Assembly (NCBI GenBank): GCA_014871385.1
Contig: CM026429.1
Coordinates: 4,614,083-4,678,082, forward strand
Direction of reading: 5' to 3'
DNA from: Ceratodon purpureus
Lineage: Eukaryota > Streptophyta > Bryopsida > Pseudoditrichales > Ditrichaceae
DNA length: 64,000 nt
The translations under genes and the position numbers were made by a program. Of this stretch, positions 9,601-61,011 are shown in pieces; position 1 is the first letter of the stretch, and the number at the start of each line of letters is the position of its first letter. The notes beneath the pieces are model-generated. The model was not told the origin of the DNA, did not search any database, and saw only the letters and a list, made by a program, of their open reading frames with translations.

Positions 9601-12600
9601 GCATAGTTAACAGTTACTGTGAGAGGCAGATTAGGCCACAAAACTGCGAGGACTTGAACTACATGATATACAGGATACAAACGCTAAACAGATACATCAG
9701 AAGGAAAATTGTTGCCAACATCGAAATAGAAGGTTAAAGGTACTTCTGAACAGATATAACCACGTAAAAACTACGAAAGAAACACAGCGACTGGAGTTGA
9801 TCCCGACGAACACGTAGACTACCTTGATCAAGATGACTTGACTCTCAGTAATGCACGATAAAGAAGCAACTGCACATATCAACATGCAAGAACCACAAAG
9901 GATAAAAAGCAAGCATACCTCGCAAAGGCAGATAATAGCAGTGGTGGCATTTGACTCCTCTTCGAAGGAGAATTAAATGCAGCAAATGCAGAAGGGCGTC
10001 TCCCTGGTGACATGAAACTCGTATTCACGGCTTGCTCTGCACTAACAGCTGCGGCACTTCCATTAGCCTTAACAGGTGCAGCTGACCCTTGATGAGGTGG
10101 TGAGACTGCAGCCTCCACTGGTTCTCCTGAAGACCGAAGAGGTGAATGAGATAAGCACGAAAAGACTAAGTAAATTTCTGAGAACATCGTGCTCATCAAA
10201 ACCTGAGGTGCCTAACAAGTATAAAGAAATTTCAGCACAATAATTCTGGTAGGCAATGAAAAACAGAAACAATAAACTCAAAGATGATGCCGAAGAGAAT
10301 GAAATGCTCCCATACTACTGCAATAAACACATATCCTCACCTGATGGATCACCAGCTTTGAAACCTCCAACAGGGGCATCCGCGGAAGCTGATGGGGGGT
10401 GATACTGTGATCTGAGGGCATCTAAACATGGCATGGGATCTGCCATCAAGTTTAAGCGATTGATTTCCGACGCAAGCTTCGGCTTTGAAATTATAAGAGA
10501 GTCATACATAGAAGAGCCCTTCTCCCACGCCATACTTTCCAAAATTCTCTCTTCGATAGAATTCAAATGCCGTTTCAGCTCACGAGGAAGACTCTCCTCA
10601 TGCCGAACAAAGTTTTCAATAACTTTACTTAAATCAAAAGCGGTTATCCCTGTTGGCTCTAATACGGCAGGAAAGGTCATAGTCACAGTTTTGTGACTTG
10701 CGAGAACTAATTCTGCTGAGCATGCAAGCATGCAGCGATGAAACCGCTCATTAGAGAGAAAAGTAAGATGGTGAGAGCGTAATCGCTGAGCTTCAGCCTT
10801 ACAAATAGTCCCAAGAGCTTTGTAATACAACTTCAAGGCTTCTAACCTGCGCTGATCAGCCCATAGATTGTCCATACTTCCTGTTTCTCTAGCTCCTCGC
10901 CAATTTCTTGCCTGGAAAATGGCTCCTAATATTACATCCGCTCTATACTTAACATCAGATGCAATATTACGGTCACCTGACTGAAAGTACTTCTGCAAAT
11001 CAGGGGAAGGCTCAGCTGGCAGAGGTGCAATAACTGTGCGAAGCCATTTAGCAGTCGTCATTGTGATACTAACAGGTGTAGGAGGGGGTTTACAGCTGTT
11101 AGTAGCAGGTAGACCTTGACTTTTTGGAGGCGATGAGCAGGGTGAATTGCATGGTGATGAAGGGGATGCAGCTGAGGATACTGCGGGGCCCTGCCCTGGT
11201 GAAGATATGGTGTCGTGCTTTCTCTGCCAGAAGTAAACGATCTGAGAATCAGAATACCGTCAACCTACACTAAAGAGGAAGTACTGTAGCCAGTGATTGT
11301 TAAAGTTTTAAAATAAGAAAAACCAAAATTATTCCCAGTAAACCAGAATCACAATTTGAGTAACAAAACAAAGTGAGCAGTTTCCTCTTCTTAAAGAATC
11401 AAATATTTGGACCCACCTAAATCTATGACTGAAAAGACAGGCAAAGTTAAGCCACATAACATTTCATTACCAAAAAAAAAACGAACGAATGCATAGATAA
11501 GTATCAATAACGCTAAATGTACGATGTGGCGATGACTTCAGAGTAGAGCATTACCTTTACTCCAGAAACACTTGGCGTACTGCCACTCGACACAGCACCT
11601 ATTAGACTATCTTCGCCATTAATGAACATTCTCTCGTCCAGTTCTCCTCGAGAACAATGCCATTCACTGTAATCGTTCTCCAAGATGAGGAGATTTGAAG
11701 ATATTTTATCATCCTTCATTAAGTCCTCAAAGTACGCTATGCCATCTGCAAAATTTTGAATGATTAGAGATATACAGAAAACCTCGGCAACTATTTGCTC
11801 AGTACAGACGTGTTCAACAAACAGCAGACAAATGTACATATAAATGATGAAGTTCAAGAATATGAATGAAAGACAGCATCAAGCGCACCTGAATTGATCC
11901 CAGAAATTTGAGGCATATTGTCGGCACTGATCTTAGACGGAGGACTTTTCATAAGATCTTCCAACATTTCATTGAGTTTCAGAACCATACAGGAAACATC
12001 CTCCTCTGCGGCATTGTACAGGTAGCAGAGCGATCCAACCAGATTGACCCCTTCTGAACTCCTTTTTGCTGTTTTGAAAACATACGAACTGTCAGATGGA
12101 AGTATCCAGAACCAACAAAGTGACAAAATCTTCTACAGCAGCAAAACATCACTTAGACAACCAGTTGAAAAGGTAGACACTATACCAAACTTCAATTTGT
12201 CGTCGAAGGAAAACCTTCTCCAAGAGAGTGGTGTATGTATGATCAAGACTATCTGCAAACGTCATGGGTTACAAAGATCAGCCACCGAACAGGAAAGAAA
12301 CATGTGATAAGCCCAAGAAAATGTCTAAAAGTGCATATGCAAAGTATGATATTAACGATTGATAAAGGGGCAAGACTTCAAGAGACACTGAAAGACATGC
12401 ACAGCTCAACACCACGTAATCGTTATATTTGGAGCTACGTATGGACAACATGTAACGATTTCATATAACTATTATCACAACACTCGAAGAGAATTAGGGA
12501 CAGGTATGAAGGATTCCGTACAATAACAGCCAAGAGACCATTGGTGCAAGTGACGAGGTCAGTGAAGTGGCTAAGCACGTGCATCCGCAACGCTAGAAAA

Positions 12601-14442: not shown

Positions 14443-16560
14443 TTTGATCAATAAGATATTGACTTTCACTTCCCGCAACAGATCAGTTGATAGGCGTCCT
14501 TTTCATATTGGATGCCGTGCGCAGACTGTCACCAGCGGTCTTGAGCAAAATGAAACGTCTCAAAATTTCGACAAGTTCGGGGTTCCACCGGAGGAAGTGC
14601 CAGTCACATTCCTTAAAGTCGAAATTACATTGAAAGGCTTAACCTGAAACATCATAAAGAACGTGAGTAATGGCCAGGAAAAAGAAGTTATGATTGGCAA
14701 ACTCTCTTAGGAATGGTACCACATCGAACAGAAGACTAGTAGCAGAGTGAAACGTGCGTACAACCAATACCAACTACATTTCCAAGGGCTCTCCAGACGA
14801 AATGGCACATGTGAATGCACTGAAACTCAACTATTACACTGCCAAAATGAATAATTACTATCAGATCATCCGGTAATCAAGACCGACGATAGTGAATATC
14901 GAATTAATTTTGGCGAGATGTAATTAGAGCACGTTCACAGAATCAACAACGACACTTCAATGCAAAATCAGGAATATGCTTGAAGCAATCTTCTTATGAG
15001 TCTGCACCAAAGACAGTTTAGAAGAACAGCATTATCATTAGCCCTCGAAACATTGCTGTCTTCGCTAGTAAGAAGACACAACGGCGCCAGGAATTCAAGA
15101 AAGCGATTCCCGGGGATGATGAATGTTCTCTAGACTATCAACTCCAAGTCTAATTGCAGGTTCGCTTGCAACGCAACCAAGAAACTCAACGATGCCTCGC
15201 TAACATCCAAGGCAAATACGTGCTAGATTACGTGTCCTAATAACACTCTCGCAGATTCTCGCAGACAATTTATTCAGAATGCATTCTCTAAGTTCTTCAG
15301 AGCTCACATATAGTCCGACAGGCAAACTAATTGACAAAAACTACACTTCCGTCTTACAAAAAATCATGATTGATTAATTGAATCCACGACGTAGAGACGG
15401 TCGCATTACCTTGTATGCATTGACCTCGAAACTATCAACTAGTGAGCCCAAACATAGTGAGCTAGTGAAAAGAGTTCTCTCATATGTGCCTCATCGAAGA
15501 GGTTAGGGTGGAAATGAAACCGTAAGAATTGTTTAGAAGGAATGGACTCTGCGACACAGCGGACGAAAATGAGCAACTTCGGGTAGTGTAACCAGGCGCG
15601 TAACCAAGCGCGGATATGAAGACAGACGACGAAATGCTTTCATCCGAAGGGCAAGAATTGACCAAATCAGATCCAGGAGACAAACACTGCTCCTCTAGGA
15701 GACATCAAGATTTTCAGAAGAGCAGGTTCCAGATTAAGAAGATCACCTCCGGACATATCTAAAATTTATTACACAGCTCAATAACTGTGCAGCAAGACCG
15801 CCCTCGACTCAAGCTTCAACAATACGCAACGCCGTTAAAACAGACAATTCGATTGCTACAGAGACTCCACACAACCCGCAGCCGTCGCCTCCAATATTCG
15901 ATAACCAGTAGGGAGATAAAATTCATGCTGTCTTCCCGATCGTACGAGCCTCACTCCAATGCCTCCCAACCTCTCCAACACCAACACTACCACACCGATG
16001 CAAACTACACAGCCCGAAGGATCTCAAGCGGCGACTCCATCCTACGCTACCATTCCTTTCATTAAAAAACTAAAAATAAATAACAAAGATAAAAACTCGC
16101 CGATAAAAAACTCCACACGTTCTCCGTTCGAAATGTTTTCCAGTCCTCCTCGCCCGAAAGCTTCGTAAATTAAATACCAGCACACAAATTCAATAAACGC
16201 CACCCGAACCGAGCCACTGCCACGAGAAAACCAAAGCCCCGCTCAAAGAAGCGCAATTTCATGTCCTAATCACTCTCCGCTACGGCAAGCGAATCACAGA
16301 CACAAAATGCTCACGAACCTGCACAACGCACTCGTATTCCACTCTGCCATAACCAGAGCTCAGCCACTCGCGCCTTGGCTCGTTCCTTCGCTGCCTCCGT
16401 CCAATAATCTTTCCACTGCATCCACACCGGACTCCAAGACAGCAACAAAACGCTCGTCACCGGCTCCGCTCCAGTGATTGCGCTCCGGTTCGTACCGTGT
16501 CCTATCAACGAAACCTGAGCAGCAGGAAGTTACATTGAGAGAGGAGTTGCGCCCTTCGGA
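14443..16560 (-). other. RBR 5' untranslated region, probable leader intron
   Basis: Upstream of the RBR start codon there is no in-frame coding extension, because stops interrupt it before 14643. A good acceptor (TTTCAG on the minus strand) lies at 14644-14649, so the leader is probably spliced. A short upstream ORF of seven codons plus stop occupies 14483-14506 on the minus strand. The rest, to about 16.5 kb, carries no coding signal I can support. The transcription start is not visible directly. Confidence 0.5.
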
Positions 16561-16607
16561 AGAGGGAGAAGAGGAGGAGAAATACGAAAAGTGAGAGGAT
16601 GAAAATC

Positions 16608-16615
16608 GCGCCAAA
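16608..16615 (-). promoter_or_regulatory. E2F consensus site upstream of RBR
   Basis: The minus strand reads TTTGGCGC, a full match to the E2F/DP consensus TTTSSCGC. It lies in a GC-richer block just upstream of the presumed RBR leader. Confidence 0.6.
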
Positions 16616-17032
16616 AGGTGGCGAGGAAGGCGCAGCAGGGGAGAGCGCAGGGGAGCGTGCGTGGAAGCGGAGATGGCGTTGGAATGAAGGATTGCAAGCG
16701 CCGAGAAGCAGCGATGGTGGCTCAGATGCTGGCACTCCACCAACAAAACAAAAGCTCTGCGAGAGAGACGACGCTGCGCGGGCTGGACCAGGCCTGCCCG
16801 ATGACCCTGCCCGTCCGCAAAGACTCAGGAGAGCTAATACCCTCCGGGTCTCGACTTCTCCCTTCGTAGAAATCAGGGTTCGGTCAAGGCTCATACCCGG
16901 GGTTTTAATAGTGGAACCCTAAACCGTGAACGGTACCGGATTATTGCGTGACGTCGCTGGAATGTGAAGAGCCAGACGACGGGAAGGGCCGGCGGAGAAA
17001 CGGGTTGAGTTGCGGTGGCTGCCCGGTTTTCT

Positions 17033-31155: not shown

Positions 31156-31392
31156 GACATACCTGAGAATTTTGAAGGGTGAAGGTTGGCTGTATCTTTG
31201 TAAATTGAATTGGCAACGAGAAATGTATCTGCACAAGAGAACTCTTAGGGAAACATCTCATCATTTGCTGCACAAGTTGAGAACCCAAAATGTGAGTTGT
31301 TGACGCTTCAAGGAAGAGCAAGTAACACACAGTAGATATAATTGTTGATTTGAAGAAAGAATAAACCAATTCCCTCCACTTTGAATTTGCCT

Positions 31393-31783
31393 CTTAGTTT
31401 AATACAACTTAATAGATAATGTGCTCGTATACACACCGCCGTCTCCTAGAAGGAGACTATGGGACAGTCACCGGTGGCTTTGTGACAGTTGTCAACCACC
31501 AATTGACTGTAAGAAGTTATTTTGTCTCAAATGTCATGAAATAGGCCTATGCGAATGACACTTCATGACAAATGCTCCTCATCACATGCATCCTAAACTT
31601 CATAATGTAAAAGCAAATGGACTCTATAGAGTTATCTCACGTCACCTACCCAAAGCCATGAGGGTGAACCATGTGGCGGTCTATTTTTCAGGGGAGTGAG
31701 GGAGAGTTATGTATCTTCGGACCCCATATACATACATGGATGTTTATACGAGTACATTATCTATGAAGTTGTTTTAAATTAAG
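31393..31783. mobile_element. Inverted-repeat element, possible MITE, about 391 bp
   Basis: The left end starts CTTAGTTTAATACAAC. The last 40 bp or so are its inverted copy with about six mismatches (shared core ATAGATAATGT ... CTCGTATA). The interior is noncoding. A target-site duplication is not clear, so the family is undetermined. It lies between the two copies of the direct repeat. Confidence 0.6.
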
Positions 31784-32292
31784 ACTCCAAGGGTACAGAA
31801 GAACAACACACCAACAAATTCTCACAACATCACCAAAAGAAATCAAGCCTTGCATGATACTAATATAAAAAAATGGATGCATTGCTAAGCACACTTACCA
31901 GGCATGGGGTCTTCATCCAGCTCCTGAAACAAAGAATGTGAAAATGGCTAGAAGATTCCTGGGAAAGGGGGAGAAATAGATGAAATGTTTTTATCTTCGT
32001 CAAGCAGCTCTAATTGCAATCCACGTTCATCTTCTTTTTTAGGAGGATTTGCCATGCGAGTGGAAAATTTCAACCCAGATGCATCAAGAATTGGATCCAA
32101 ATCTGCGTGCTGGGAACTAGAACCATGGTGCTGGGTGTCGGGAGCAAATCTGCCATGCAAAAGTAACTCTCGTCAATAGGCAGTATGAAGCTCCTTCAAC
32201 AGCGTGAGTTGCATCTCGTCAAACATAACCTTCAATTCACCTTCTTCATCTCGACACTATCGGAAAAACCCTAAACTAGGAAAATTTTCATA

Positions 32293-35025: not shown

Positions 35026-35683
35026 TAAACAAAATCATACACTCTTAAAGTGGAATTTTTCCTCAAACTGCCATAAATTGATGGAGTTACTCCACTACAG
35101 TAGAACCTGCCTAAACTAATACTGTTGGGACCATTAGATTAGGGAGGTTATTAGTTAATGGAGGTTGGATGTACTACTTGCTGATGTAATAGTACTGCTG
35201 GGACCATTAAATGAGGGAGGTTATTAGTTTAGACAGTAAGGTTATTAGTTTAGACAGTATTAGTTTAGACAGGTTCTACTGTAATAGGAGTCTTTGCAAG
35301 TTGATTGCCATCATGTCCTTTATCTTTTTGTAAAGTTAAAAATTTGATCAAAATAGATAGTCAACTTTGAATGCATAGTTGTCACTTCCACATCATACCA
35401 AAGCTTTGCATATCTTACAAAGGATTGAATTCCCTAGACTATTCCATCATTCAAAAAACATTTAAAAAAAAAAAGAGGTTAATGTAAGCTTCTATCTAAC
35501 TTGTACAACTACTAGATTCTACAAATTCTATAATACTTCTTAGATACTCACACACCAAGCTTCAAAGCATGCATGGCACTATGATTAATGAATGTTGAAG
35601 TTTACTAGTAAAACATCCGTCCACGGCTAAATTTGTTTAAGTGCAAACTTCCAGTTTAGTTTAAGAGTGTATGATTTTGTTTA
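35026..35683. repeat. Perfect 24-bp inverted repeat bracketing 658 bp
   Basis: A 24-base sequence beginning TAAACAAAATCATACACTC (35026-35049) recurs exactly inverted at 35660-35683. The bracketed DNA is noncoding and contains the pogo-type MITE. It may be an older MITE that received the smaller one. No clear target duplication is seen. Confidence 0.6.
35098..35281. mobile_element. pogo/Emigrant-type MITE, 184 bp
   Basis: The left end reads CAGTAGAACCTGCCTAAACT and continues AATACTG. The right end is its inverted copy with a single mismatch. TA flanks both sides (35096-35097 and 35282-35283). The CAGTA(G/A)AACCT start and TA duplication are the hallmarks of pogo-like MITEs such as Emigrant and Lemi1. 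High end identity suggests recent activity. Confidence 0.88.
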
Positions 35684-36369: not shown

Positions 36370-36458
36370 AAATCATTCAGAAATCACAATAGCATGTTAA
36401 AATCACTCAGAAATCACAGTAGCATGTTGAAATCATTGAGAAATCACAGTAGCATGTT
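36370..36458 (+). repeat. Tandem repeat of about 30 bp, target of the piggyBac insertion
   Basis: Three consecutive units (36370-36398, 36399-36428, 36429-36458) each end in TAGCATGTT and contain CAGAAATCACA or GAGAAATCACA. The sequence after the element (TTAAAATCAGTG..ATCACAG) resembles the beginning of a fourth unit, so the element inserted in this array. Confidence 0.75.
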
Positions 36459-37324
36459 AACCCCTAAAGGAGCTTGCTCTCCGGAGCAGGTCAGGAATAC
36501 AGGAACTCTGTAAAGGCGTAGGTGAACTCCGAACCTCGGTAGCAAAGGTTCTGTTCATGATTTTTGATGGCACTTGTTGGGTAATCTGTGTGCGGAAGTG
36601 TAGAAGATAGAGGTCGAATGAATTTGTCGATCGAGTATGTGTTCGATTTATGAGGAATTTCGTAGTGGGAGGGGGTGCAAACTCCGGTGAAATTGCGATA
36701 CGTATGTGCCTCGCGAGTCCACGGGTCCAGGATCGCCATCGGTTATAGGCCCTACGGTTGGCACGGTTCCCGACGATGCGTGTCAGAGACGGTGAGCCGG
36801 TCACTTCGGTTACCTGGAGAACCGGTCCCCTGTAATCACGGGGAAGTTCGGCGGTACTTTGGGATGGTGTCCAGACGCGTGGACGAATAGGAAGAGAGTT
36901 CTGACGGTTTGGCCGTGTCCCACGACAGTGGATCACCAACCGCCGTGAAGTCCATGGGGTGCGGCCTCACATTCGGTTACTGGAGAGCACCGAAAACACA
37001 ATCGCTCTCAGTGAGCACTGATAGAGCACACCTTACGAAGTGGGGAAATATACTTTATAAATTTGTGCGGTGCTTCTTCCACAGACAGAAGAAGGAAAAC
37101 CCCTGCCTACATATCAGCCTATGTTCGAGGTGATGGTCAAATTCAATACCGAGAGTTTGAGAATGTCTTTACTGCGACCTTCTAGTAAGAGAGCAGACGA
37201 CGTATCTACATAGAGACAGAACTGACACGAAGTAGTGGACATGTAGCAACTATGTACAGATTGTTCATATGGCTCGGAAGACACAGTGGAGCCAAGAGTT
37301 TCTACTCTGAATTGAGAGGCCTAT

Positions 37325-38690
37325 TCACTCCTTTGTTACCTTGAATTCCACATATCCTACTTTTGTAAACAATAGAGTATCGCCGAGGCCAAAGTTGTTG
37401 GAGGTGCAGAACTCCGGCCAACCTTTGGTGAAGAAACACTGCGTCTGCGTTTTCGCCTCATGGCACATTGTCCTGACAATCGCTTCCGTTACAGGCCCCG
37501 TCAGTACGTAATCTTTCTGCTTGAAGCCAGCCTCCCCCTCAGCGCGCCAATACGCTGTGGGAATGTCCTGCCAGGATATGTATATATGCGCATGGGTTAC
37601 CTTGGGAAAAAGAGTACAACAAATTCGCACTAAACCTATGCACTCGGAAATTAGGAATTCAATTTTCTATTGTCATTCAGGTGAAATAAAGAAACGACAG
37701 CAAATGGGTACAGTCGAAATCATGGAAAGAAGATTGCAAACGGAACTCACAAGTCTGCCTGACTTCTGCTGGAGGAGATGTGATTTGCGGAGTGTCTTCC
37801 GGAAGTGGGGAAGATGGGTCATTGCAGGGCGAACTCGTGCACGAGACTGAATGCCTTCGGATTGCGGGACCTGCGCAGCTTCACGTTCATCGAAGAGAAT
37901 GTCAAGCAAGACGTCGTCAACCTCGGGTTTAGGGTGAAGAAGGTCGGGGACAGGTATTTCCTCCCATGCTCCAGCGTCGCGTGTAGGTAGACGTCCATGC
38001 TGGCGAGGGCGCAGCGCCTTGGGAAGGCCACACTTAGGCAGGGACGGGACTGCCGCATTCTGAACCGCCGGTTTCTCATCCGGGGAAGACTCCAAGACGC
38101 CGCTACGGCGGTGGATTTCCACGGCCAGGCAACGATCATCAATCACCTCGAAGGTGAGGAATGCACCCACCCCGAGGTGGTTGTCCGCAAGGAATTTTGA
38201 CCACCCACAACAGACAGACTTCGCGGAAATTGTAGCAAAACCACTGCCGTCGACGCGCTCCAGCTCTAGGGGCCACTCCCTCCACGTTGTGATGGACATC
38301 ACAAGGGCGCACTTCGACTCCCCTGGCCAACCTGTACTCGTAGTAAACGTGGTCGGGATCTCCTGCCACACCAACATGAAGATCACATAAGAAAAGAGGT
38401 GTACTTCCATGTCCTCGAAGGACTCTGCTGCAACGGACCTAGGTTGAGAGACGCCATGTCCATGTCGACTAAGTGTAGACAGGGGTACTCACCAGTGGAG
38501 AGTTCGGCGCGGTCGATGACACTGTCAAAGCAAAATACCGGGCTCCGACATCGTTCAGCTCTTGGAGAATCTCCATCACGGTTCGTTCAAGAGCCATGTC
38601 GTGGAGCTGCTGCTGCACTGTTCGCTGAATGAGGGGCTTCCCCGAAGGTGAAGGAATACAGGGAGTACTTGGGCTGTGGGGCAAGACCAT
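37325..38690 (-). CDS. Two-B3-domain protein carried by the piggyBac element
   Basis: Three exons, 38493-38690, 37751-38362 and 37325-37567, join with phase-0 introns (GTGAGT donors, CAG acceptors) to 350 residues. The first B3 domain is about residues 67-152 (EIPTTF, CGWSKFLADNHLGVGAFLTFEV) and the second about 271-350 (DIPTAY, FFTKGWPEFCTSNNFGLGDTLLF). The W-x-F...N-L-G-x-G-D/A...F pattern is that of B3 DNA-binding folds in plant transcription factors. Each B3 domain begins exactly at an exon start. The linker is proline- and basic-rich. It may bind element or host DNA; the role is unknown. It lies wholly within the inverted repeats, so it is cargo or an element gene rather than a host neighbour. 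The start codon choice is tentative. Confidence 0.78.
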
Positions 38691-39622
38691 AGAGGTGAGA
38701 GTGCTTAGAACATGTGAGAGTGCAGTGGGCGTTTACAGCGCATGAAAATGAAATAGTTAGAGTGGAGGAAGACACCTGAATTGCTGCTTAGGCTTTGGCT
38801 CATTATGGGCCGTACGCGCTCTTAAATCTCCTTACGGCTAGGTGTAATGACAGTATCTGATCGAGATCGGTGAATCATGAGCAACAAGTCCCGTCAACAA
38901 CGGCGTGTCACTTCAGTAATCATGAAATCAATCCACTGGGGACTTAGGGGTCTCACCTGCAACTCCAAGTATGGAGATTCTAGCGCACCTTCGTTGGCGC
39001 TGAGCTAGGATTGAGTCCCTCTTGAATCCTGGATTCCCCCAATCAGGACGTATAACCGAAGACATGGCACAAAACACCCCCTCCTATCTGTCAGAACAAT
39101 CACAGAAAACTGTAACTAAGAACGACAACTCCCAGTAAAAGGGAATCGACAAAGCAATAAGAGCAATGCCCATGAGTCTGTGCACAAAAATGTGTTTCAG
39201 AAGTGCACCCCCCGTCACGTACAGGTCGGAGCCAGTCGAGGATGGAACTCTCGGAACTCCAACCATGTCCAATGAAAGAAACACATCGCGAAACCTGAAT
39301 CACTGTGCAAGATGCACTTCAAGGGTGCACAACGTAACAGAGCCGGGATGCGTATATAAACCACATACCTTACTGAACTTCCATAAAAGGAGTTTACAAG
39401 GACACGAGTTCGTTAAAGTTCATAGGGTCCAGGAGCATTCTAAAATACAAAACATCATAGTGATGACGAGAACAGGCGCGGCTCAGAAGCTGGGAAATTC
39501 CAAAAAAACAAATACATGGTCCGACGAGAAGAAGAGTGGCCGAACACGAATAACAAAGTCTTCAGGAGACCGGGGAGATACACATAGTTTTGCTAAGCAG
39601 AGTGACAGAGAAGGGCCGGAAG
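38691..39622. other. Intergenic stretch within the piggyBac element
   Basis: The region separates the B3 gene start from the stop of the acidic ORF. A plus-strand frame (39166-39633) has no domain and no supporting context. It is presumably the promoter region of the B3 gene and the 3' region of the upstream ORF. Confidence 0.4.
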
Positions 39623-40312
39623 TTAGTCAGTGACGTCGTCCAGCAGCGGCGACGGCGCGCCATGCCGGTCACGGTCGATGTCGTCAGAGGAGCAGGCGCT
39701 CCCCTCGTCTTCAGAGTCCGATCCCGTGGGCACTACTGGTGGAGGTCGCCCCACAGTGTTTGCCGAAGCCGCTGTCGCTTCACCGACGGGCACGACCTGC
39801 ATTCGAGGGGGGGGCAGAGGCCGGTCCATGGCGTCTACATGGTAAACTCCGGTGAATCTGGCGACGGCTTGATATTGCGCCTCGCAGGTAGGGGACCAAT
39901 CCCAGACGAAGTCATCGTCGAGGAGATGAGTCAGCGCACCATACGGGGGGAGTTCGACGTCCCAGTTCACCTGCTCAAAGAGCTCGAGACGCCGTAGCCA
40001 CTCCCGCACCTCCTCCACAGTGGACGGTCGCTGCAAAGACACTTGGTCAAATCGCCGCTTCATCCTTGCGAGTCTGAGCAATTCTTCGGGCTTAGAAAGA
40101 AGAGAAGTAGGTGAAGAAATCAGAATATGATCTACTGTTGGGGGAGGGCTTACCTTCTGGACTATTTAATGGCGTCTCAAATGAGTACCTTCCAGGCACA
40201 CTTGTCCCGGACGACGCAGCTTCCGTTGACAACCTCTAATGCGAAATCCCTGGGTACAGAGATTGCAATGAAGAACACTTTTGGGACTACACTCCAGCGG
40301 CGTACCCTGCGC
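39623..40312 (-). CDS. Acidic-tailed protein of the piggyBac element, partial model
   Basis: The last exon (39623-40090) follows a TTTCTAAG acceptor and encodes 155 residues: a charged helical start (EELLRLARMKRRF, EEVREWLRRLELFEQ), then a proline-rich part and an acidic end (GSDSEDEGS, SSDDIDRDR). An upstream exon ending at 40189 (donor GTACTC) joins in phase 0. It reads VPRDFALEVVNGSCVVRDKC, which could be the first half of a B3 domain; that is tentative. The 5' end is not resolved. I do not recognise the family. Same strand and element as the transposase and the B3 gene. Confidence 0.4.
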
Positions 40313-41752
40313 AGGTCCAGCACGAATCCAGGAGAACGATGTCACGGTCTAACGTGAGAACTGAGGACGGGTCTCCCCTTCAACGACTTCATGTGCCTGC
40401 GATCGAGACGGCCAGTACAGAGAAGTATACTTGGAGCCAAGCCTGACGCGGACAGTGGACGACGAGACAGGGGAAATGACAAGTGCAGGAGCACTCATAC
40501 GACGACTGAAGTGTCATTGAACTGAAATGCCTCCGGTACAGCAGAAATGCAGCAAGTGCGTGAGGGGGGGGGGGGGGGGCAGGGACAGTGGACACTCACC
40601 TACGGTTCACGGCAGAAGAGCGGCCCGTGAATGGGAAATGAGGTATTGCTGTCACCACGCTCTTGGGACTGATTAGATAGAGCTGACTCCCGGATTCTGT
40701 AAGTGCTGGTAAATGCATGTGGAATCTGCCTCGTCATACCCGGAGGCACGAAGTTCGTCCATTCGTCTCTGTCTTCCTACAGAAGTAACTGCATGTACAC
40801 AGTAAGTCCGGCACATAGAAATATCATTGAACTGAACCGACGCCAATGTAAGAAGCGAAGTAAGTATAGAGGAACTACAATAGCGGGTGAAACATGGATT
40901 GAACTCATACTCTAAGTTCCTGTAATCACAAAGAACACAGTTTAGCGTGGACCAGCAATGTAAGAGACAGAGGCCAGAGTTACCTCCTAGAAGAAGTTAC
41001 CTTGGATGGGGAAGGTACCTCCCAGAAGCGGGCAATTACACTGTGGCGCGATTGAAAAAACCTCAGATTCCTCCAGCGCACCGCGGAACAACCCTAAACC
41101 AAAAAGGGCCGGGCTACAGTGACGAGCACAGAAGAACCGGAGAACGCACTGACTCCACAAACGCATATGACAAACTCCAGAAACGCACATCATTCCGGCA
41201 CAGAGAATGGTGACCACCGGTCAACCAATAAACGTAGCACACACCGAATGAAGAAATGCAAGAAATCCACTGCCAAGCCTAATCATCTGAGGCGGTATTG
41301 CGCGCAGACGAAGAGGATGTGCACATTTACAGACTGCGTTCAGGATGTTCAGCGGCCAGCATTTACAAACAAAGTACGAGTCTCGGGGCGGGTAGTTCGT
41401 GAAGTAATGTCAGTGCGTTCAAAATGTAGATGCATGCATTCCTACGCAAGCGCGACCCTAAGAAGTGGGTCCAAAAAAACACTTCACAGCGCTACTCTGG
41501 TGGTGCACGATGTCCACGGATGTCCACAGCCCTTCGCTCGTACGGGGTTCTGGTCTTTGGTGCGACGATATGACATGCCCTTCAGTCACAGCGACCGACG
41601 CCGTTTTCGCCGAGGGGAGGAGCTAGGTAATTCCTTTGCGGCGGATTCCACCAGGAGGTGGAAGGTGGACCACGTCTCCCACCATGTCCGATCAGCGACT
41701 CCCTCCTGCCATGACCACGGACGACGGAAGTCAGAGACAGTAAATCATACCT
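40313..41752. other. Unresolved stretch between transposase stop and acidic ORF
   Basis: A run of G at about 40564-40579 and several short frames are present. On the minus strand a possible exon just after a TGGCAG acceptor (about 41595-41707) ends in a basic SPRRKRRRSL and a stop. It could be an alternative end for a transcript of the element: a GTATGA donor lies just after the transposase stop codon. No gene model can be fixed by eye. Confidence 0.35.
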
Positions 41753-44700
41753 CTAAATGAGCCCCTCATGTTGTGCCCTATAACACTCCTCCGGGCACAT
41801 CCACCTCTTCCCGCAGGCTTTGCAAAACCACTTTTGCACACGGCCACAGATTACACATCTTCGCTTCAAAGTCGATCTATATAGGGTGTGGACAGTCGGG
41901 GGCCGTCTCAGTGGAGGGGCGGTATGGGTGAGTCTTTTGCGAGCCCGAATGGCACCCTGGGCTAGGTAAGTTCCAACTGCGATCTTGAACGCAAGGTGCG
42001 TGGTGGCTGGCAATCCAACAGCCTCCATTTCCTTCACCCAGCAGACGTAGGCATTGACCATTGTCTGGTCTACGACAAGATGAAACAATTTAAGCCACCA
42101 CTTGTGACACCTTAGTTGGCTAGAGTAGCTCCCCCGAAGCTGATCCGTGACGTCCACCCCCCGCATGTACTCCACGTACTGCCGGTGCATGGGGGAGGAC
42201 GGCACAATGAGCCTGCCTCTCAATCCATCCACCTTACGCAACACCTTCGTATTCGGCTCCCACGGCGGCGCAGCAGTGCTAAGGAGCGTGACCAGTTTCT
42301 TATCCTGCCAGGATACCACGCCCATCTGTCTGTGGACGTGGGTCCTGATCAGCATGGAACCCCGCACAGACGGATCCAACTGGCGGTACAAGCCTCCTGG
42401 CAAATTCTTACTGTACCTCCTCACGGTGCCGGTAGCCCATATACCTTTGCACATGAGGTCGTGAAAGAGATTTACACTTCCAAAAAAATTATCCACGACG
42501 AGACAATGTCCGCGATTCTCCAGCCCGGTCATCATGCGCTCCACCACGTGGTAGCCGAGGCCATGCGGCCCTGCTCCTGTTCCCTCTCCAAAGTATACCT
42601 CAATGGTGTACACAAATCTACTCTTTGAACTAGCAAGAAGCCACGCTTTAATACCAAACCTGACAGGTTTCTTAGGCATGAACTGCCTTATGAAACAATA
42701 CTTCCCTTTGTAGGGAATGACACATTCGTCTACTGTTATTTCCCTCTCTAAGTTATAGATCTCCCTGGAAACTGTGCCGAACATGTCCACGAGCCACCTT
42801 GTTTTTGCTATCCTGTCGAACTTCGGGTCTTTCACATCTCGGATCAGAGTACTGTTGTCCACCAGGTGGAGGCAGCGCATAATGTCCTCCCACCTCCTGA
42901 GCGTCATGATGGAGGCGATCAATGTGCAATACAGGAAGGGCTGCTTGCGCATCCAGTACTGGCGCACGCTGGGGAGGCGTTTGCAGCCCATGAGAACACA
43001 AATCCCTATCCACCCCCGGATTTCGTCACGGGTCACATCTTTCCACAGCCGTCCCCCTTTTGTCCTCGGCGCTTCATTCTCCACGGCAGGCATGGTGGTT
43101 TTGGCGTACCTGTTTGTTTCAAACACAATCCGGTCCAATACAGCATCAGACCAGTACATTTCAAATACAGTCTGGGGCAGCGGGACTCCCGGCGGTCTGG
43201 GGCCCTTCAACCCTGGTTCAGGGCCTGAGAAGTTGTCGCGACTTCGGACAAAGTTCACGCTGGCTGACGACCACGAGGCCTTCCTGTAGTAGGCAGCCAG
43301 TTGGTTCTCATCCATTGGCACCGGTGTGAAAGCATCCGGAGCCATGCACCATGCTTCAAGGCCCTCCGGGTCCTTCACCGCTTCATCCTCGCATATTTGT
43401 GCGAAGTCGGAGTCACTGCTGTAGAAGGTGTCTTCAAACTCCGGGAGCCAGTCGGAGCCACTCGAATCCGGGGCCTCCACTACAACTTTTACCTTACCTT
43501 TTGCGACCTTAATCACAGGAGGCAACATGTAATCCGGGAGATCAACGCTTACCTGCGGAAAGGTCATCCTCGCAGTTGAGTCTTGCGTTCCATCCACGCC
43601 TTCGATGTCGGAGGGGGGGTCGTAGTCGGCAATCGGCTTGCCCGCTGGCGCGGCTGCTGCGCTCTTCCCGGTGTTGTTCTCGGCTACGTGCTCCGTGCGC
43701 CCTGGGCCCTGTCCACTCCCAGCCCCGCTTGCTTCTCCCTCGGCTGCTTCAACCTCGTCATCTCCAGAGCTCCCGCCAAGTGCTGCATCTGCGGCCACCA
43801 CCGGTGTCCCCGGGTAGGAATCAAGTGATTCAGGGAACAGGACTGGCTGTTGTGGACTGAAGCAATGCTGCCTCTTCCACCAGCCATATCCATGTCCCCC
43901 CTCGCTGCCACATGCACGGATGTCTGGACCATTTGCGATCCGAACATTCTCTTCCGCCAAGTGGCACTCCGTGTTGTACCCCCCGAGATCACAAATTACC
44001 ATCTTCTGTCCCGTCACAAGGTGTATGCCCTCCCCGGTGACATCCCCTTGTGTCCATGAAGGGGTATCTCCTGTATGGAAAGATGACTCGGAGAGGAACC
44101 TGTTTGGAACAAGGACGGCCCACCCCGACCTCCTCGAACTCCAGTCCACGTAGGTTCCGAAGAAGCGCTCTGGCATTATGTCCACGTTCACCAGGACATG
44201 CCTCTCCATCGCTCCCCCAGGATGCGTGCTGTCGAAACCGATACTCCTCGCAATTGGAGTGGACCTCGTCCAAGAGTCATCACGGAACACCGCATCCCAG
44301 AGGTCCAGGTTCCAAGTCTCCATGCTCTGAACCGAGTGCTGCGATTCTGGAGCCACGAGATCTTCCGCTGCCTCGTACCCGTCGAAATGCGCAAGGACCT
44401 CGCGGATGGTGTCGTCATTTGCCGTCTGTCGCTCATATTCCGCCACTTGCGCCGCGAGCGCACGCGTTCTAACACCGTTTGTGAGGTTAGGAACGACTTC
44501 TGGGGGGAGCCAGTCCGTCGGCTTCCTCAGCTTGCGGATGCTTTTCCCCTTCAAATCCTTCCACTCCTTCACGGTCAGTCCCCCTCTAGCTTTCTTCCGT
44601 CCCTCTGCAATTCACCAAGTACGGACATTAATCCAACAAACTCTGCTTAGAACATTGTGATACCCATCGCGAAGTGGGCGACATGTTACGCAATCTACTC

Positions 44701-47232
44701 GGATGTTGGACAGTTCCAGGTAACGTACTCGGCAGTTGTGATATCGCAATGCTACGGTAACTCGTGAACTGGAAAAACAAAAGTACTTCCTCCTACAAAC
44801 CCAAGAGACACGTGCGCAGAGGAACTCATCGCACATGAGCATTTACAGGAAACAGAGGACCAGAACATTACCATAGAGGAGATTCTAATATACTTACGTG
44901 TAGAGGCGGGCGTCCACTCCGGAGGAGGAGGACCGAAATCGTTTGCTGGATCGCAGGCCGGCATGGGCGTCTGCTGTGCCAGGATTCCTACTCCGCAGCT
45001 CGCGTCCCCGACCTTCTTCGCTCGGGACTTCCGCGGGGGCTTTGGTGTGCTTTCCCCCCCTTCTGGAGCGACCTTCTTCAGCCTCGGCTGGCGGGGCTTC
45101 CGGGGCCTCTTCAGGCCATCCACTGCCTGCGTCATGACGACCTCTGCTTCCCCACGTGGTCCCTGGCTGTCCACCCCTAACAAGGGAGCTGAAGCCGCCT
45201 GCAATGGAAGCTTTGTAGGCGTTATTCCCTCAGTTTCCCCCTATACAGAGTTTCTACTCTTCAGAAAAAAAAAAAAAAATCACACACAGAGCACGAATGT
45301 TCACACCTTATAACATGTAAGAGTAGGAGGAGGTCTTCCTTACCTTTTTTCCCCTCGGCTTGCGGGGTTTCTTGAGGCATGGCTCCAGACCCCCCTCCTT
45401 CGCCTGCGTGGTGGCCATATCCGCGTCCGGTACCACCTCCTGCGTGTTTCCCTCGAACACAGCAGACGGAACCGCCTGCACCAGGGGATCGTTAGCATGA
45501 CTCCCCTACATCCCCCTCATGAACCGCGTATGTCTTTAAGAAAAATTTAATCAACACACAAGGAACGCATTCAAAACTGAAGACTCTGTTTCATGAGGTT
45601 CGTCAATTACCTTCTTCTGTCTGGAAGTGCGCGGCCTTTTGGCCGGCGTGCTGGCCATATCCCCGCCCGCTACCACTCCCGCGGTGTCCCCGGGTTCCAA
45701 CAAAGGCTCCGGAACAACCTATTGGCACGAAGTCGTTAGCATGAGTTCCGAACAGCCCTCCACTGAATGGAGTATGTCTTCACAGAAAACAGGAATTACA
45801 CTGTGCATGACGACATTTACAGTTGAAGAGTGCACTGCATTCGCGGTTTACCTTCTTCACTCGTGGCTTGTACTGTCTCTTTGGCCGTGCCTCCGGCACT
45901 CCCTCCAGCGCCTGCGTGCCCTCCACTTGAGGGTCCCGTCCCAGCTCCGTCGTATTCATGACCAACACCGGGGGTGGAATCACCTTCGCACAGACGGTGG
46001 TCAGTCACAGTCCCCTCCCTTTCAAGTAAGGCCGTAAATCATGAAGGGCCGGAGGTCAGCATCGTAACAACTGAATCGCACAATTGGCATCGACAAAACA
46101 TTGAGGAATTATTAATTAATGCTTACCTTCGTCGCCCTTGCTCTCGGAGGTTGCTTTGGCTTCGGGGACGGGTCGACATTCTCCTTGCCACCCTGTGTCC
46201 CCTCTGTCTCTGCTGCGACTCCCCCCTGCAACACCTTCCATTACAACAGAGGCGAATTTTGAGCTCCACGAGAACCCTGAACGCAGGAAACATAGACCTC
46301 AAAGAAACTGCAAACTTCCCCGGCAAAAACTCGCAATGGAAATCCAGCATTTCAATGAAGAGAGGAACCTGTTTCTGGGCCTTCGTTAGCCGCGGTTTTC
46401 TTGGCTTCTTTGGAAGGGCCCCACTCTCCGGCGCCGTTTGCACCAGGACCACATCGGAATCGACTATCTCCTGCGGATGCCAATGAAAGAAACTGTAAGT
46501 TCTGTACAATTGCTCACCGAAGTTCAACTTCCATTCAGAAATAGTGCTTGTGCCCTAATTTGTATCTGAATTTCTTGAAATGGCTGTGGAAGGGGTCGTC
46601 ACCTCCGTCTGCCTGCATGAACCTTCTTTGCAATACGAGTTCTTCAAGAATGGATATGTGCTACAGAACACTCATCAATCAATGCTGGCTGTAACAGTCT
46701 TGTAAGAAGACATCAGACATTGCCTACCAATGACAGAATGTGAGAACCCTAAACCGAAGGACGGGGCTCCGGGTGAGTATATACCTGCGGAGTCTTGTTT
46801 GGATCCGTCGTGAGGGGATCCTGTGTGGGAGGCGGCTGCGACCCTGCCTTGGAGGTCCTCGCCAGGCGCTTCAACATTTTTTCCCGAACTTGGGAACACG
46901 TGATTGCGCAAGATGTCCGTCACAGTTGCAGGAAAAGGCCGTCGCTCGCACCAACCGAGAATGCGAGCTGCGTGTCTGTACCACAGGTACCGACACCGTT
47001 CTGGCTCCCCAAATTTTCCCCTACGATTCCACTTGCTCGGACGTGGTTCCTTGAGCACTGTCCTCGCGTCCAGGAGTTGCAACGCGCGCTCCACTCCACG
47101 CACTGAAACTCCTTGCCCTTCGAACCACTTCTTCAATTCTCCCCCCACCGCTCCAAGTTCCCTTCCTGATTGATTGTGGCCTGTCTCTCCCATGTATGGG
47201 TTCTCTCTGGAATCAATCACCACGAATTCTAC
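41753..47232 (-). CDS. piggyBac transposase with long modular N-terminal extension
   Basis: The last exon (41753-44604) holds the transposase. Upstream exons 44898-45198, 45344-45475, 45611-45718, 45852-45983, 46127-46225 and 46369-46470 join in frame, giving at least 1241 residues. A further 5' exon (46785-47232) is likely, but its junction is unresolved. Counting from the GTG at 44572, the DDE-type residues are Asp615 (ITVDEC), Asp694 (LVVDNF) and Asp807 (GVDVTDQ, with Asp810 behind). The end has a cross-brace cysteine domain (Cys906, 909, 917, 920, 926, 930 and His935). These catalyse cut-and-paste transposition at TTAA through hairpin intermediates. The five small exons 45344-46470 are each a multiple of three, and most end in Lys/Arg/Pro-rich motifs (KKPRKPR, RPKRQYKPRVKK), as does the adjoining exon. 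They may bind DNA like AT-hooks. No frame damage is seen. Confidence 0.92.
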
Positions 47233-47840
47233 CTGCAAATGAGCAATACTGATTGCAACCAACACGAATTCCAATCCCCACCACCAAACCCTCTTGTAGG
47301 CAAGTCCAGAGTCCATCCTACCAATCGCCCCTCTCAACCGGTACACCTTCAACGTGGTTGTCAACCTCATTGCAGCCGCCTCCGCACAGCGACTCCCCGC
47401 AGCCCTTCAGTCCGGATGCCTCATACAAAAACATAAACAAAGTTGTAGAGCCGCAAAACAAGAGTGGGGGAGGTGGAAGGCGAAAAACGGAGCGGGAATC
47501 CCATATCGCCACACGCGGGAGTCCTTGTAACGACGACGACCACCTCACCCGGTCACCAACGGCCACCGCAGATCACGGGGATCTTACCCCCAAGACCGTC
47601 CCCGACCTCCGTCAGAATGAGCAGTTTCCTCAGGAATACGTGGATATGCGCATACATTTCGTCACAGACACCGGAGTATGGCTTAGAATGAAATTCAAAA
47701 AATCATGTAATTATCACATCTTCAATGCCGTCATATCCGTAGTTACTCCCGAAACTAGATTCCATGTCCTTCGAGGTGAAAACCGCTAATACAGCACTAC
47801 CGTAGGCCAGAATGGCCTGTCAGCTCCTTTAGGGGTTAAA

Positions 47841-48144: not shown

Positions 48145-48273
48145 ACGTTATTGCACAGGTCCGAGGGTTTACGGTGTGTAATGCACTCCCACCTACCTTC
48201 CTCGTGCTTCGCACTCGGTAGGTAGGTGGGAGTGCATTACCCACCGTAAACCCTCTCGTCCATGCAATAACGT
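48145..48273. repeat. Long hairpin (foldback) repeat, 129 bp
   Basis: The arms share ACGTTATTGCA at the outside, then GGGTTTACGGTG, GTAATGCACTCCCACCTACC towards the centre, with a loop of about 19 bases. There are few mismatches. It is a foldback element or hairpin MITE. No clear target duplication is seen. It lies 300 bp from the piggyBac right end but outside its TTAA. Confidence 0.75.
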
Positions 48274-59706: not shown

Positions 59707-61011
59707 CTAACCTATATAAGGTAGGATTTTTGACAAGTATCCAGAAGTTGGAACATCAAATTCAAATGACTTCCAATACTTCCAGGTCAATACTAAACTA
59801 TACACATATGCTACAATATAGGATATTGGATAAACCCAGACGGCGATATAACTACCAATGTTCGAAAATGATTTAAAATTATTAGAACAATACTCTATAA
59901 CTACCAAAAGTGGACTTGATGAAATTATCAACATAATCAAAGGTACAACTAAAGTTAAAGGTGTCGACCGTAAATCATAGATTAAAAAAAGTACTAAAAC
60001 ACTACAAAAAAATAAAGAGACTAGACCTTCACCTAAATAACTCCTCAATTTTCTTGCATATAACACATAAGCATTCTCATCACACTTTTCACACTTCATG
60101 ATGAATTCTTGTTCCTTCCCATCATTTAAGAAAATGACAAGGGGTCTATGGCAACTACTCACAAAAGAGTGAAACATTGCCCTTACCAATATCATGATGC
60201 TCAAATAGAATCCAACCACTTCGATTGGACTCACACGTCGGCCTTGCACAACTCGAACAACAACGCCATATACATACCCAACACCTTGAGCTGCAGATAC
60301 TGCCACTGCAAGTCCTGAACTCCCTTGTAAGATCTTCAATCGATCAATAGGAGGAAGCACACCACTCTTTATCAACATCTCTTTCCCAATCGCACTAAGT
60401 TGTACAATTGTGTCTTTCCAATCTGGCACTTCTGTACCAAGCACAAGTGCGTCTGAAAAGTCTGCCACATCCACCTCCTCATGAAAATTCTTAAGTTTGC
60501 CTTTAAAGTCACCATTGTAAGCAGTTGCTGAGAGGTGCACAACCACTTTACAAGATACTAATGTTCTGATGTACGATCTTGCTTCCCGAGTAGTGCTCAG
60601 CCGCCTCCTCATTGTCCAACTCCTCACAACGTAGTCCAATTTATTCGTAAGGCTTGTTAATGGATTTAGGGAACCCCATACACATACCAAAGCCACCTTC
60701 CAAAAATAATCATCAGCAGCATTCTTAAGGATGCCCCAATCGTCTAGAGACAAGGCCACACAGGTGAGAATGAATCCCCACACGGTGCTCACCAAGTCCC
60801 TGGAGCTTCCCTCACAATTAGCTGGAGGAGACATCGGAGGAGCAGCCGCTTGAGCGGCGACCATGCCCCACAGACACGCCATGCTCACCACATACAGCGC
60901 CCAGCGGGAGTTGCGGCTAATGCCCGACCCCAGTTTGCCACAATATTGCCTCTTCATCTTGTGCACCTCACCAACTCTCAAGTCAGGAACCAGATCCCAA
61001 GCTTTAACCAA
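59707..61011 (-). CDS. Intronless membrane protein of unknown family, up to 434 residues
   Basis: One uninterrupted frame. After a basic start comes a signal-like hydrophobic stretch (about 38-56, ending AQAAAPPMS), then a hydrophobic segment around 70-85. The middle (about 130-200) is soluble and charged. Several membrane spans follow: about 225-250, 258-275, then three or four more between 330 and 425. A Cys pair sits in KCEKCDE. I do not recognise the family. A TATATATAA box on the minus strand (61020-61029) lies too close to the first ATG; initiation at Met19 (60957, MKRQYCG) is therefore more likely and would give 416 residues with the signal nearer the start. Confidence 0.65.
   Translation of the reverse strand: MVKAWDLVPDLRVGEVHKMKRQYCGKLGSGISRNSRWALYVVSMACLWGMVAAQAAAPPMSPPANCEGSSRDLVSTVWGFILTCVALSLDDWGILKNAADDYFWKVALVCVWGSLNPLTSLTNKLDYVVRSWTMRRRLSTTREARSYIRTLVSCKVVVHLSATAYNGDFKGKLKNFHEEVDVADFSDALVLGTEVPDWKDTIVQLSAIGKEMLIKSGVLPPIDRLKILQGSSGLAVAVSAAQGVGYVYGVVVRVVQGRRVSPIEVVGFYLSIMILVRAMFHSFVSSCHRPLVIFLNDGKEQEFIMKCEKCDENAYVLYARKLRSYLGEGLVSLFFCSVLVLFLIYDLRSTPLTLVVPLIMLIISSSPLLVVIEYCSNNFKSFSNIGSYIAVWVYPISYIVAYVYSLVLTWKYWKSFEFDVPTSGYLSKILPYIG

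What the first reader, a model, noticed from the sequence alone, without database searches (positions are those of the whole stretch)
36461..47836. An 11.4-kb piggyBac element with cargo in a plant genome
Exact 14-bp inverted ends (CCCCTAAAGGAGCT), TTAA on both sides, subterminal hairpins at each end and an intact catalytic triad define a complete piggyBac-superfamily element. It is about four times the size of classic members (2-3 kb). This superfamily is best known from animals and is, to my knowledge, rarely reported in land plants. The extra length holds further genes, including a double-B3 protein. It may be a new lineage of large, gene-carrying piggyBac elements.
Basis: partly seen in the sequence, partly recalled or inferred. 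Interest (0 to 1): 0.95.

Follow-up and report, generated by a model that had tools for sequence, protein, structure and literature searches.

The report
Multi-gene piggyBac transposon in a moss
An 11.4-kilobase jumping gene of a kind best known from animals has recently copied itself between chromosomes of a moss, carrying several of its own genes, including one for a plant-type DNA-binding protein.

Summary
Confirmed and extended. Window 36461-47835 is a complete piggyBac-superfamily element: exact 14-bp inverted ends, TTAA on both sides, a 939-aa open frame with DDE_Tnp_1_7 (E 8.5e-72), catalytic aspartates and a cysteine-rich tail. The host is inferred to be the moss Ceratodon purpureus: contig C6 is exactly as long as that species' V-chromosome record. 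A second full-length copy lies on contig C7: 11,390 bp, 99.0% identical, TTAA on both sides, unrelated flanks. So the extra genes move with it. A third, decayed copy is on C11.
At least 49 related transposase loci exist, 30 with an uninterrupted frame of 900 aa or more. Gene order is fixed: a conserved N-terminal exon upstream in 48 of 49, a small acidic-tailed protein downstream in 22, a double-B3 protein downstream in 26, 25 on the same strand; none lies on the wrong side. Three other families each have two near-identical copies at different sites. This is a lineage of large, multi-gene, recently mobile piggyBac elements; the double-B3 gene is a recurring component. What the accessory genes do is inferred.

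The parts
36461..47835 (-). Complete piggyBac element, 11,375 bp (genes on the minus strand; the N-terminal-exon end is the right end)
   Evidence: Exact TIRs and TTAA; 98.99% identical copy at G000:C7:3258118-3269507 with unrelated flanks
36457..36460 (.). TTAA, left target-site copy
   Evidence: Direct sequence
36461..36474 (+). Left terminal inverted repeat (TIR), 14 bp
36475..36488 (.). Left subterminal hairpin, 5-bp stem
   Evidence: stem lost in the decayed C11 copy
37325..38690 (-). Double-B3 protein gene, 3-exon model made by eye (38690-38493, 38422-37751, 37600-37325), 381 aa
   Evidence: Model; two Pfam B3 stretches, E 2.2e-14; P0029 (Ceratodon purpureus, KC19_VG102700) aligns across all three exons at 34%
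39623..40081 (-). orf152: small protein with an acidic tail; the conserved part starts near the internal ATG at 40063
   Evidence: No Pfam match; relative P0046 59% over 111 aa; 75 matches in the genome, the weaker ones possibly chance; 0 of 459 bases differ between the window and C7 copies
41753..44604 (-). Main transposase exon (939-aa open frame from 44572): SH3-like barrel candidate (residues about 102-228), catalytic core (466-842), Cys-rich tail
44898..46475 (-). Probable transposase 5' exons, each with a basic AT-hook-like repeat (such as KKPRKPR); some are related duplications. Exon borders read by eye, label recalled
   Evidence: Translations; 70% self-match between 45399-45544 and 45639-45789
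46785..47193 (-). Conserved N-terminal exon ('NTD'), no Pfam match, six predicted helices
   Evidence: 65 relatives at 53-78%; 150 matches in the genome; no family in 50 sequences scanned beyond three single weak matches; model pLDDT 69
47804..47818 (.). Right subterminal hairpin, 6-bp stem, overlapping the block GGCCTACGG, which recurs at the same offset in the C6/C10 family
47822..47835 (-). Right TIR, 14 bp
47836..47839 (.). TTAA, right target-site copy
   Evidence: Direct sequence

Best explanation
This is an autonomous-looking, recently mobile cut-and-paste transposon of the piggyBac superfamily in the moss Ceratodon purpureus, and a member of a large lineage with a fixed gene order. Shown: complete ends, TTAA targets, a transposase with its catalytic residues, a second near-identical copy elsewhere, and many related loci with the same gene order. 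Inferred: the transposase (N-terminal helical exon, basic AT-hook-like repeats, a possible chromatin-reader-like barrel, the DDD core and a Cys-rich domain) pairs the TIRs and moves the whole unit into TTAA. Also inferred: the double-B3 protein is an accessory DNA-binding factor of the element. It may bind subterminal or promoter DNA to help transposition or to keep the element expressed against silencing, as second proteins do in En/Spm, MuDR and VANDAL elements (recalled). The acidic-tailed orf152 product may be its partner.
For: Transposase identity. Second copy: 98.99% over the full length, TTAA both sides, no flank similarity found; 92 substitutions in 11,371 bases. Third copy on C11, 11,252 bp, TTAA and matching TIRs at both ends, transposase with 8 stops. 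Family: 49 scored transposase loci, 30 with an open frame of at least 900 aa and no stop. Order: NTD upstream on the same strand in 48 of 49, downstream in 0; orf152 downstream on the same strand in 22 of 49, upstream in 0; B3 downstream in 26 of 49, 25 on the same strand, upstream in 0. Other two-copy families: C5/C11 12,899 and 12,903 bp, fetched ends 99.6-100% identical, TTAA at all four ends; C10/C6 10,981 and 11,383 bp; C4 10,929 bp with a partner on C12. End motifs TTAACCCCTAAAGGAG, TTAACCCCTTTTGCAG and TTAACCCCTAAAGGAT occur 15, 19 and 104 times against 0 for each reversed control. Of 134 of these 138 ends (the rest not listed), 23 neighbouring pairs face inward within 20 kb, 1 outward and 3 the same way. 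G+C is 0.53 inside against mostly 0.25-0.49 per kilobase outside.
Against: No transposition was observed and no empty site compared. The C7 copy has an 8-bp insertion that breaks the transposase frame. The exact 14-mer alone occurs four times, and so does its reversed control. The TIR begins CCCC, not CCYT as the consensus quoted in PMC10175614. The C12 copy has lost TTAACC at one end and reads CTAA at the other. 27 of 49 transposase loci show no orf152 within 8 kb and 23 no B3 within 10 kb; one B3 lies on the opposite strand. Half of the 98 B3 loci have no piggyBac gene listed upstream. No expression data. By eye, the reading phase at the end of the NTD exon does not fit the next exon I favour, and an automatic chain did not settle it, so NTD could be a separate upstream gene.
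Confidence: 0.93

Rival explanations
1. Simple piggyBac that captured a host B3 gene as passenger cargo.
For: B3 domains are typical of plant regulators (recalled). Of 98 merged B3 loci, 50 have no listed NTD or scored transposase upstream (recounted with all 150 NTD rows), so some may be host genes.
Against: B3 lies downstream of the transposase on the same strand in 25 of 49 loci, in other families whose B3 proteins are only about 26-55% like this one. That means old, stable co-inheritance. P0029 shares even the spacer motif.
Confidence: 0.08
2. Domesticated host genes with chance matching ends.
For: Transposase frames are intact in 30 of 49 loci.
Against: Near-identical copies at unrelated sites with exact ends and TTAA; a decayed copy with matching ends.
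Confidence: 0.01
3. This copy is immobile or silenced, and the two near-identical copies were made by a transposase acting in trans.
For: Many related transposases could act in trans; the C7 copy is frameshifted; expression is unknown.
Against: The window copy has uninterrupted frames for transposase, B3, orf152 and NTD. The exact 14-mer search found only these two copies with these ends.
Confidence: 0.1

Closest known systems
piggyBac (Trichoplusia ni) and piggyBat
   Same: DDD core, Cys-rich tail, TTAA target, short TIRs; sequence match to 9c0f and 6x67
   Different: piggyBac is 2472 bp (PMC10140906, passage seen). This element is 11.4 kb with several genes, a long extra transposase N-terminus, and ends starting CCCC
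Teratorn (medaka)
   Same: A large multi-gene element moved by a piggyBac-like transposase (PMC10175614, passages seen)
   Different: About 180 kb with at least some 90 putative genes, 17 herpesvirus-like; here 11-13 kb with plant-type B3 and no viral match among the six element ORFs scanned
Long animal piggyBac elements (up to 9.51 kb)
   Same: Superfamily and short TIRs (PMC10813416, passages seen)
   Different: That paper describes its elements as containing single ORFs
piggyBac-labelled repeats in land plants
   Same: Superfamily label: C-Fern repeat table, 1230 copies covering 122,417 bp (PMC6890710); angiosperm MITEs (PMC10004981); passages seen
   Different: Those passages show short or tabulated repeats only, no transposase, gene content or copy pairs
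En/Spm, MuDR and VANDAL elements of plants (recalled)
   Same: Works like: autonomous plant elements that encode DNA-binding accessory proteins beside the transposase
   Different: Other superfamilies and target sites; relation of the accessory proteins not tested

Membership tests
piggyBac superfamily | DDE_Tnp_1_7 type transposase | tested here: met
piggyBac superfamily | Catalytic DDD | tested here: met
   D615, D694, D807 identical in all relatives that cover those columns
piggyBac superfamily | C-terminal cysteine-rich domain | tested here: met
   CxxC...CxxC...C pattern kept in the 14 of 27 relatives that reach this far
piggyBac superfamily | TTAA target site on both sides | tested here: met
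   Window, C7, C11 decayed, C5, C11, C10, C6 and C4 copies; not met in the damaged C12 copy
piggyBac superfamily | Short TIRs (12-19 bp) | tested here: met
   14 bp exact
piggyBac superfamily | TIR begins CCYT (a consensus quoted in PMC10175614, taken here as descriptive, not defining) | tested here: not met
   Undamaged ends begin CCCCT in all families seen
piggyBac superfamily | Seamless excision restoring one TTAA | not testable with these tools
   Needs empty sites or an assay
Teratorn-like elements | Size near 180 kb with herpesvirus genes | tested here: not met
   11,375 bp; no viral family among six element ORFs scanned
Chromatin-reader domain (Tudor/BAH/SAWADEE-type barrel) in the transposase | SH3-like barrel fold | tested here: inconclusive

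The most novel reading that the evidence does not exclude
Mosses host an old, diverse and still active plant lineage of multi-gene piggyBac elements. Its transposase has gained an N-terminal module, AT-hook-like repeats and a chromatin-reader barrel that steers integration. Its double-B3 protein is an element-encoded, sequence-specific factor that recognises the element's ends or promoter and counters host silencing.
Probability: 0.4. Interest if true: 0.85.

Novelty: new variant of a known kind. Interest (0 to 1): 0.75.

Why it matters
piggyBac is a main gene-delivery tool and is best known from animals. A 2008 survey listed only five other superfamilies for plants (PMC2528002, passage); later papers name plants among hosts (PMC10794571, PMC10140906, PMC10813416; passages), and a fern repeat table lists the label (PMC6890710). 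A moss lineage with dozens of intact transposase frames and very recent copies offers native plant piggyBac enzymes that naturally carry 11-13 kb. It makes testable why a transposon keeps its own B3 gene, a protein type better known from plant development (recalled).

Tried and rejected
Searches of viral contigs with the transposase, with alignment A1 and with an end pattern, and of genome contigs: no relatives there. Rfam at gathering thresholds: no match in the window.

Joined-flank test: the left flank ends in three 30-bp tandem repeats; I tested whether the right flank resumes the repeat. Of 308 TTAA-anchored sites, the true one included, 21 score as high or higher, so not significant. Repeated subterminal motifs: none beyond shuffles.

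Contig-length matching: three transposase and three N-terminal-exon entries of the protein database share contig lengths (12306, 9439, 8272), which suggested linkage before the genome could be searched. In one search the frame scan read only one strand of each locus, so that column was not used; its identity table was.

Searches used parts of the lists (102 and 114 of the 150 N-terminal-exon rows, counted; 36 of 75 orf152 rows; 150 of 160 B3 matches, the rest not listed). One search repeated the N-terminal-exon and orf152 counts with all listed rows and gave the same numbers; one search moved one of the 51 left-over B3 loci to the linked side.

Literature: PMC10619864 seemed to match but only says 'piggybacking'. 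Two papers looked up by DOI are not held. In searches I saw no title or abstract on piggyBac in mosses; most listed papers were not opened, and the library holds only open-licence PMC papers. A fern table and a grass table list the label.
Full report
THE OBSERVATION. The two 14-bp ends are exact and inverted, at 36461-36474 and 47822-47835, with TTAA directly outside each. The element is therefore 36461-47835, 11,375 bp. Inside it G+C is 0.53, against mostly 0.25-0.49 per kilobase outside (one 1-kb step at 16001-17000 also reaches 0.53). The open frame 41753-44572 (-) of 939 aa carries the piggyBac-type domain PF13843 (E 8.5e-72) and matches the solved piggyBat and piggyBac transposases (E 2.2e-27 and 4.1e-20). 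Its aspartates D615, D694, D807 and its cysteine-rich tail are kept in the relatives that cover them.

HOST. The protein database names one annotated relative of the element's B3 protein, KC19_VG102700 of Ceratodon purpureus, on a record of 110,524,308 bases. Contig C6 of the window's own assembly has exactly that length. The assembly has 362,488,568 bases in 151 contigs, and the window lies on C9. I infer that the host is C. purpureus, a moss, and, from the V in the locus name, that C6 is its V sex chromosome. A retinoblastoma-type A domain at 10315-11061 (E 4.4e-60) fits a eukaryotic nuclear locus.

MOBILITY. The exact 14-mer occurs four times in the genome, forming two inward pairs: the window copy and C7:3258118-3269507 (the reversed control pattern also occurs four times, so the count alone proves nothing). 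The C7 copy is 11,390 bp and 98.99% identical from end to end, in opposite orientation, with TTAA on both sides and no similarity between the flanks compared (1 kb a side here, 618 and 693 bp there). There are 92 substitutions over 11,371 aligned bases and four indels. An 8-bp insertion breaks its transposase frame, so the window copy is the one of the two with an open frame. A third copy of the same family, C11:1555882-1567133 (11,252 bp; coordinates worked out), is decayed (transposase 78% identical with 8 stops; 88% and 75% identical at its two ends) but still has TTAA and the TIR CCCCTAAAAGAGCT at both ends. The whole unit, extra genes included, has therefore moved.

THE LINEAGE. The transposase finds 62 matches, which are 49 loci plus 13 second fragments; the first look had 1225 candidates, of which 49 were scored, so counts are lower bounds. 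Identity to the window over the main matches is 54-71%, apart from the window's own two further copies (98% and 78%). By my count of that table, 30 of 49 have an open frame of at least 900 aa with no stop; 19 do not. The N-terminal exon finds 150 matches, all that were scored of 306 candidates, orf152 finds 75, the weaker of which may be chance, and the B3 protein 160, of which 150 are listed. With all listed rows, the N-terminal exon lies upstream of the transposase on the same strand within 8 kb in 48 of 49 loci and downstream in none; orf152 lies downstream on the same strand in 22 of 49 and upstream in none. B3 lies downstream within 10 kb in 26 of 49, 25 of them on the same strand, and upstream in none. 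Against this: 27 of 49 show no orf152, 23 no B3, and of 98 merged B3 loci 50 have no listed N-terminal exon or scored transposase upstream; some may be host genes, relics, or elements beyond the scored lists.

OTHER FAMILIES. Parts were fetched for three further pairs of close copies. C5:10975336-10988234 and C11:11800295-11813197 (12,899 and 12,903 bp) are 99.6-100% identical over the fetched ends, with TTAA at all four ends and no similarity beyond them in the fetched flanks. C10:2459439-2470419 and C6:95199105-95210487 (10,981 and 11,383 bp) are 98.3-99.0% identical over the fetched parts, with TTAA at all four ends, although the two TIRs of each match each other only in part. C4:2607117-2618045 (10,929 bp) has TTAA at both ends; its C12 partner, over 99% identical at the fetched ends, has lost TTAACC at one end and reads CTAA at the other. 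The undamaged ends of all families seen start with CCCCT. Three 16-base end motifs occur 15, 19 and 104 times against 0 for each reversed control. Of 134 of these 138 ends (four not listed), 23 neighbouring pairs face inward within 20 kb, 1 outward and 3 the same way; pair sizes run from 1.7 to 17.3 kb, and the short ones are likely non-autonomous derivatives.

BEYOND THIS GENOME. The protein database gave 27 transposase relatives (only the 7996 candidates sharing most words were scored), 26 of them 49-71% identical, on unnamed contigs of sources ena, jgi and lgn, probably metagenomes. Two of the 26 are 96.7% and 99.8% identical to loci of this genome; the other 24 reach at most 80% to the 30 loci held, so they probably come from other mosses, which is inference. 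In the one tree built no well-supported group holds the window copy, and the only outgroup was one distant protein, so its place among animal, fungal and algal piggyBac is untested.

MECHANISM. Shown: ends, target, transposase, transfer of the whole unit, fixed gene order. Inferred: the transposase acts as in piggyBac; the B3 protein and the orf152 product are accessory factors of the element, by analogy with other autonomous plant transposons (recalled). At the N-terminal-exon end, the block GGCCTACGG follows the TIR at the same offset in the window and C6/C10 families, with GGCCTATGG in the C4 family; this is a candidate binding site, untested.

LITERATURE. [quoted passage not shown] Later texts name plants among piggyBac hosts, a fern genome table lists 1230 PiggyBac-labelled copies covering 122,417 bp (PMC6890710), a feather-grass table one of 75 bp (PMC8319324), and a review names piggyBac MITEs of angiosperms (PMC10004981). 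So piggyBac in land plants is not new in itself. I saw nothing in the listings on a multi-gene lineage in mosses.

VERDICT. The element belongs to the piggyBac superfamily by every defining feature that could be tested; only the descriptive CCYT end consensus is not met. What is new, as far as the library searched shows, is a large, diverse, multi-gene and recently mobile piggyBac lineage in a moss with a recurring B3 gene.

Noticed in passing
C7 copy (L005/L006): Two 8-bp insertions relative to the window copy, each followed by a more or less similar 8-mer; they could be footprints of another transposon (hAT-type makes 8-bp duplications, recalled).
   Followed up: partly
G000:C5:18568312-18570024 (L074) and other short pairs of 2.4-6.8 kb: Short TTAA/TIR-bounded stretches without a scored transposase, likely non-autonomous derivatives; the 1.7-kb one has no B3 match.
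   Followed up: partly
G000:C1:25449757-25450264: Four copies of the end motif TTAACCCCTAAAGGAT in the same orientation every 164 bp: a tandem array of an element end.
   Followed up: no
G000:C6:106153802-106156733 and 106177959-106180890: orf152 and B3 fragments in mirror-image arrangement about 21 kb apart on C6, as in an inverted duplication.
   Followed up: no
36370-36460: Three 30-bp tandem repeats end at the left TTAA; continuation on the right side was not significant.
   Followed up: yes
35096-35283 and 31392-31784: MITE-like inverted repeats (30-nt arms 97% and 44-nt arms 89% complementary).
   Followed up: no
48145-48273: Snap-back inverted repeat, 63-nt arms with 3 nt between, just right of the element.
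   Followed up: no
59707-61011: A 434-aa open frame, membrane-protein-like by eye, without Pfam match at E 0.01.
   Followed up: partly
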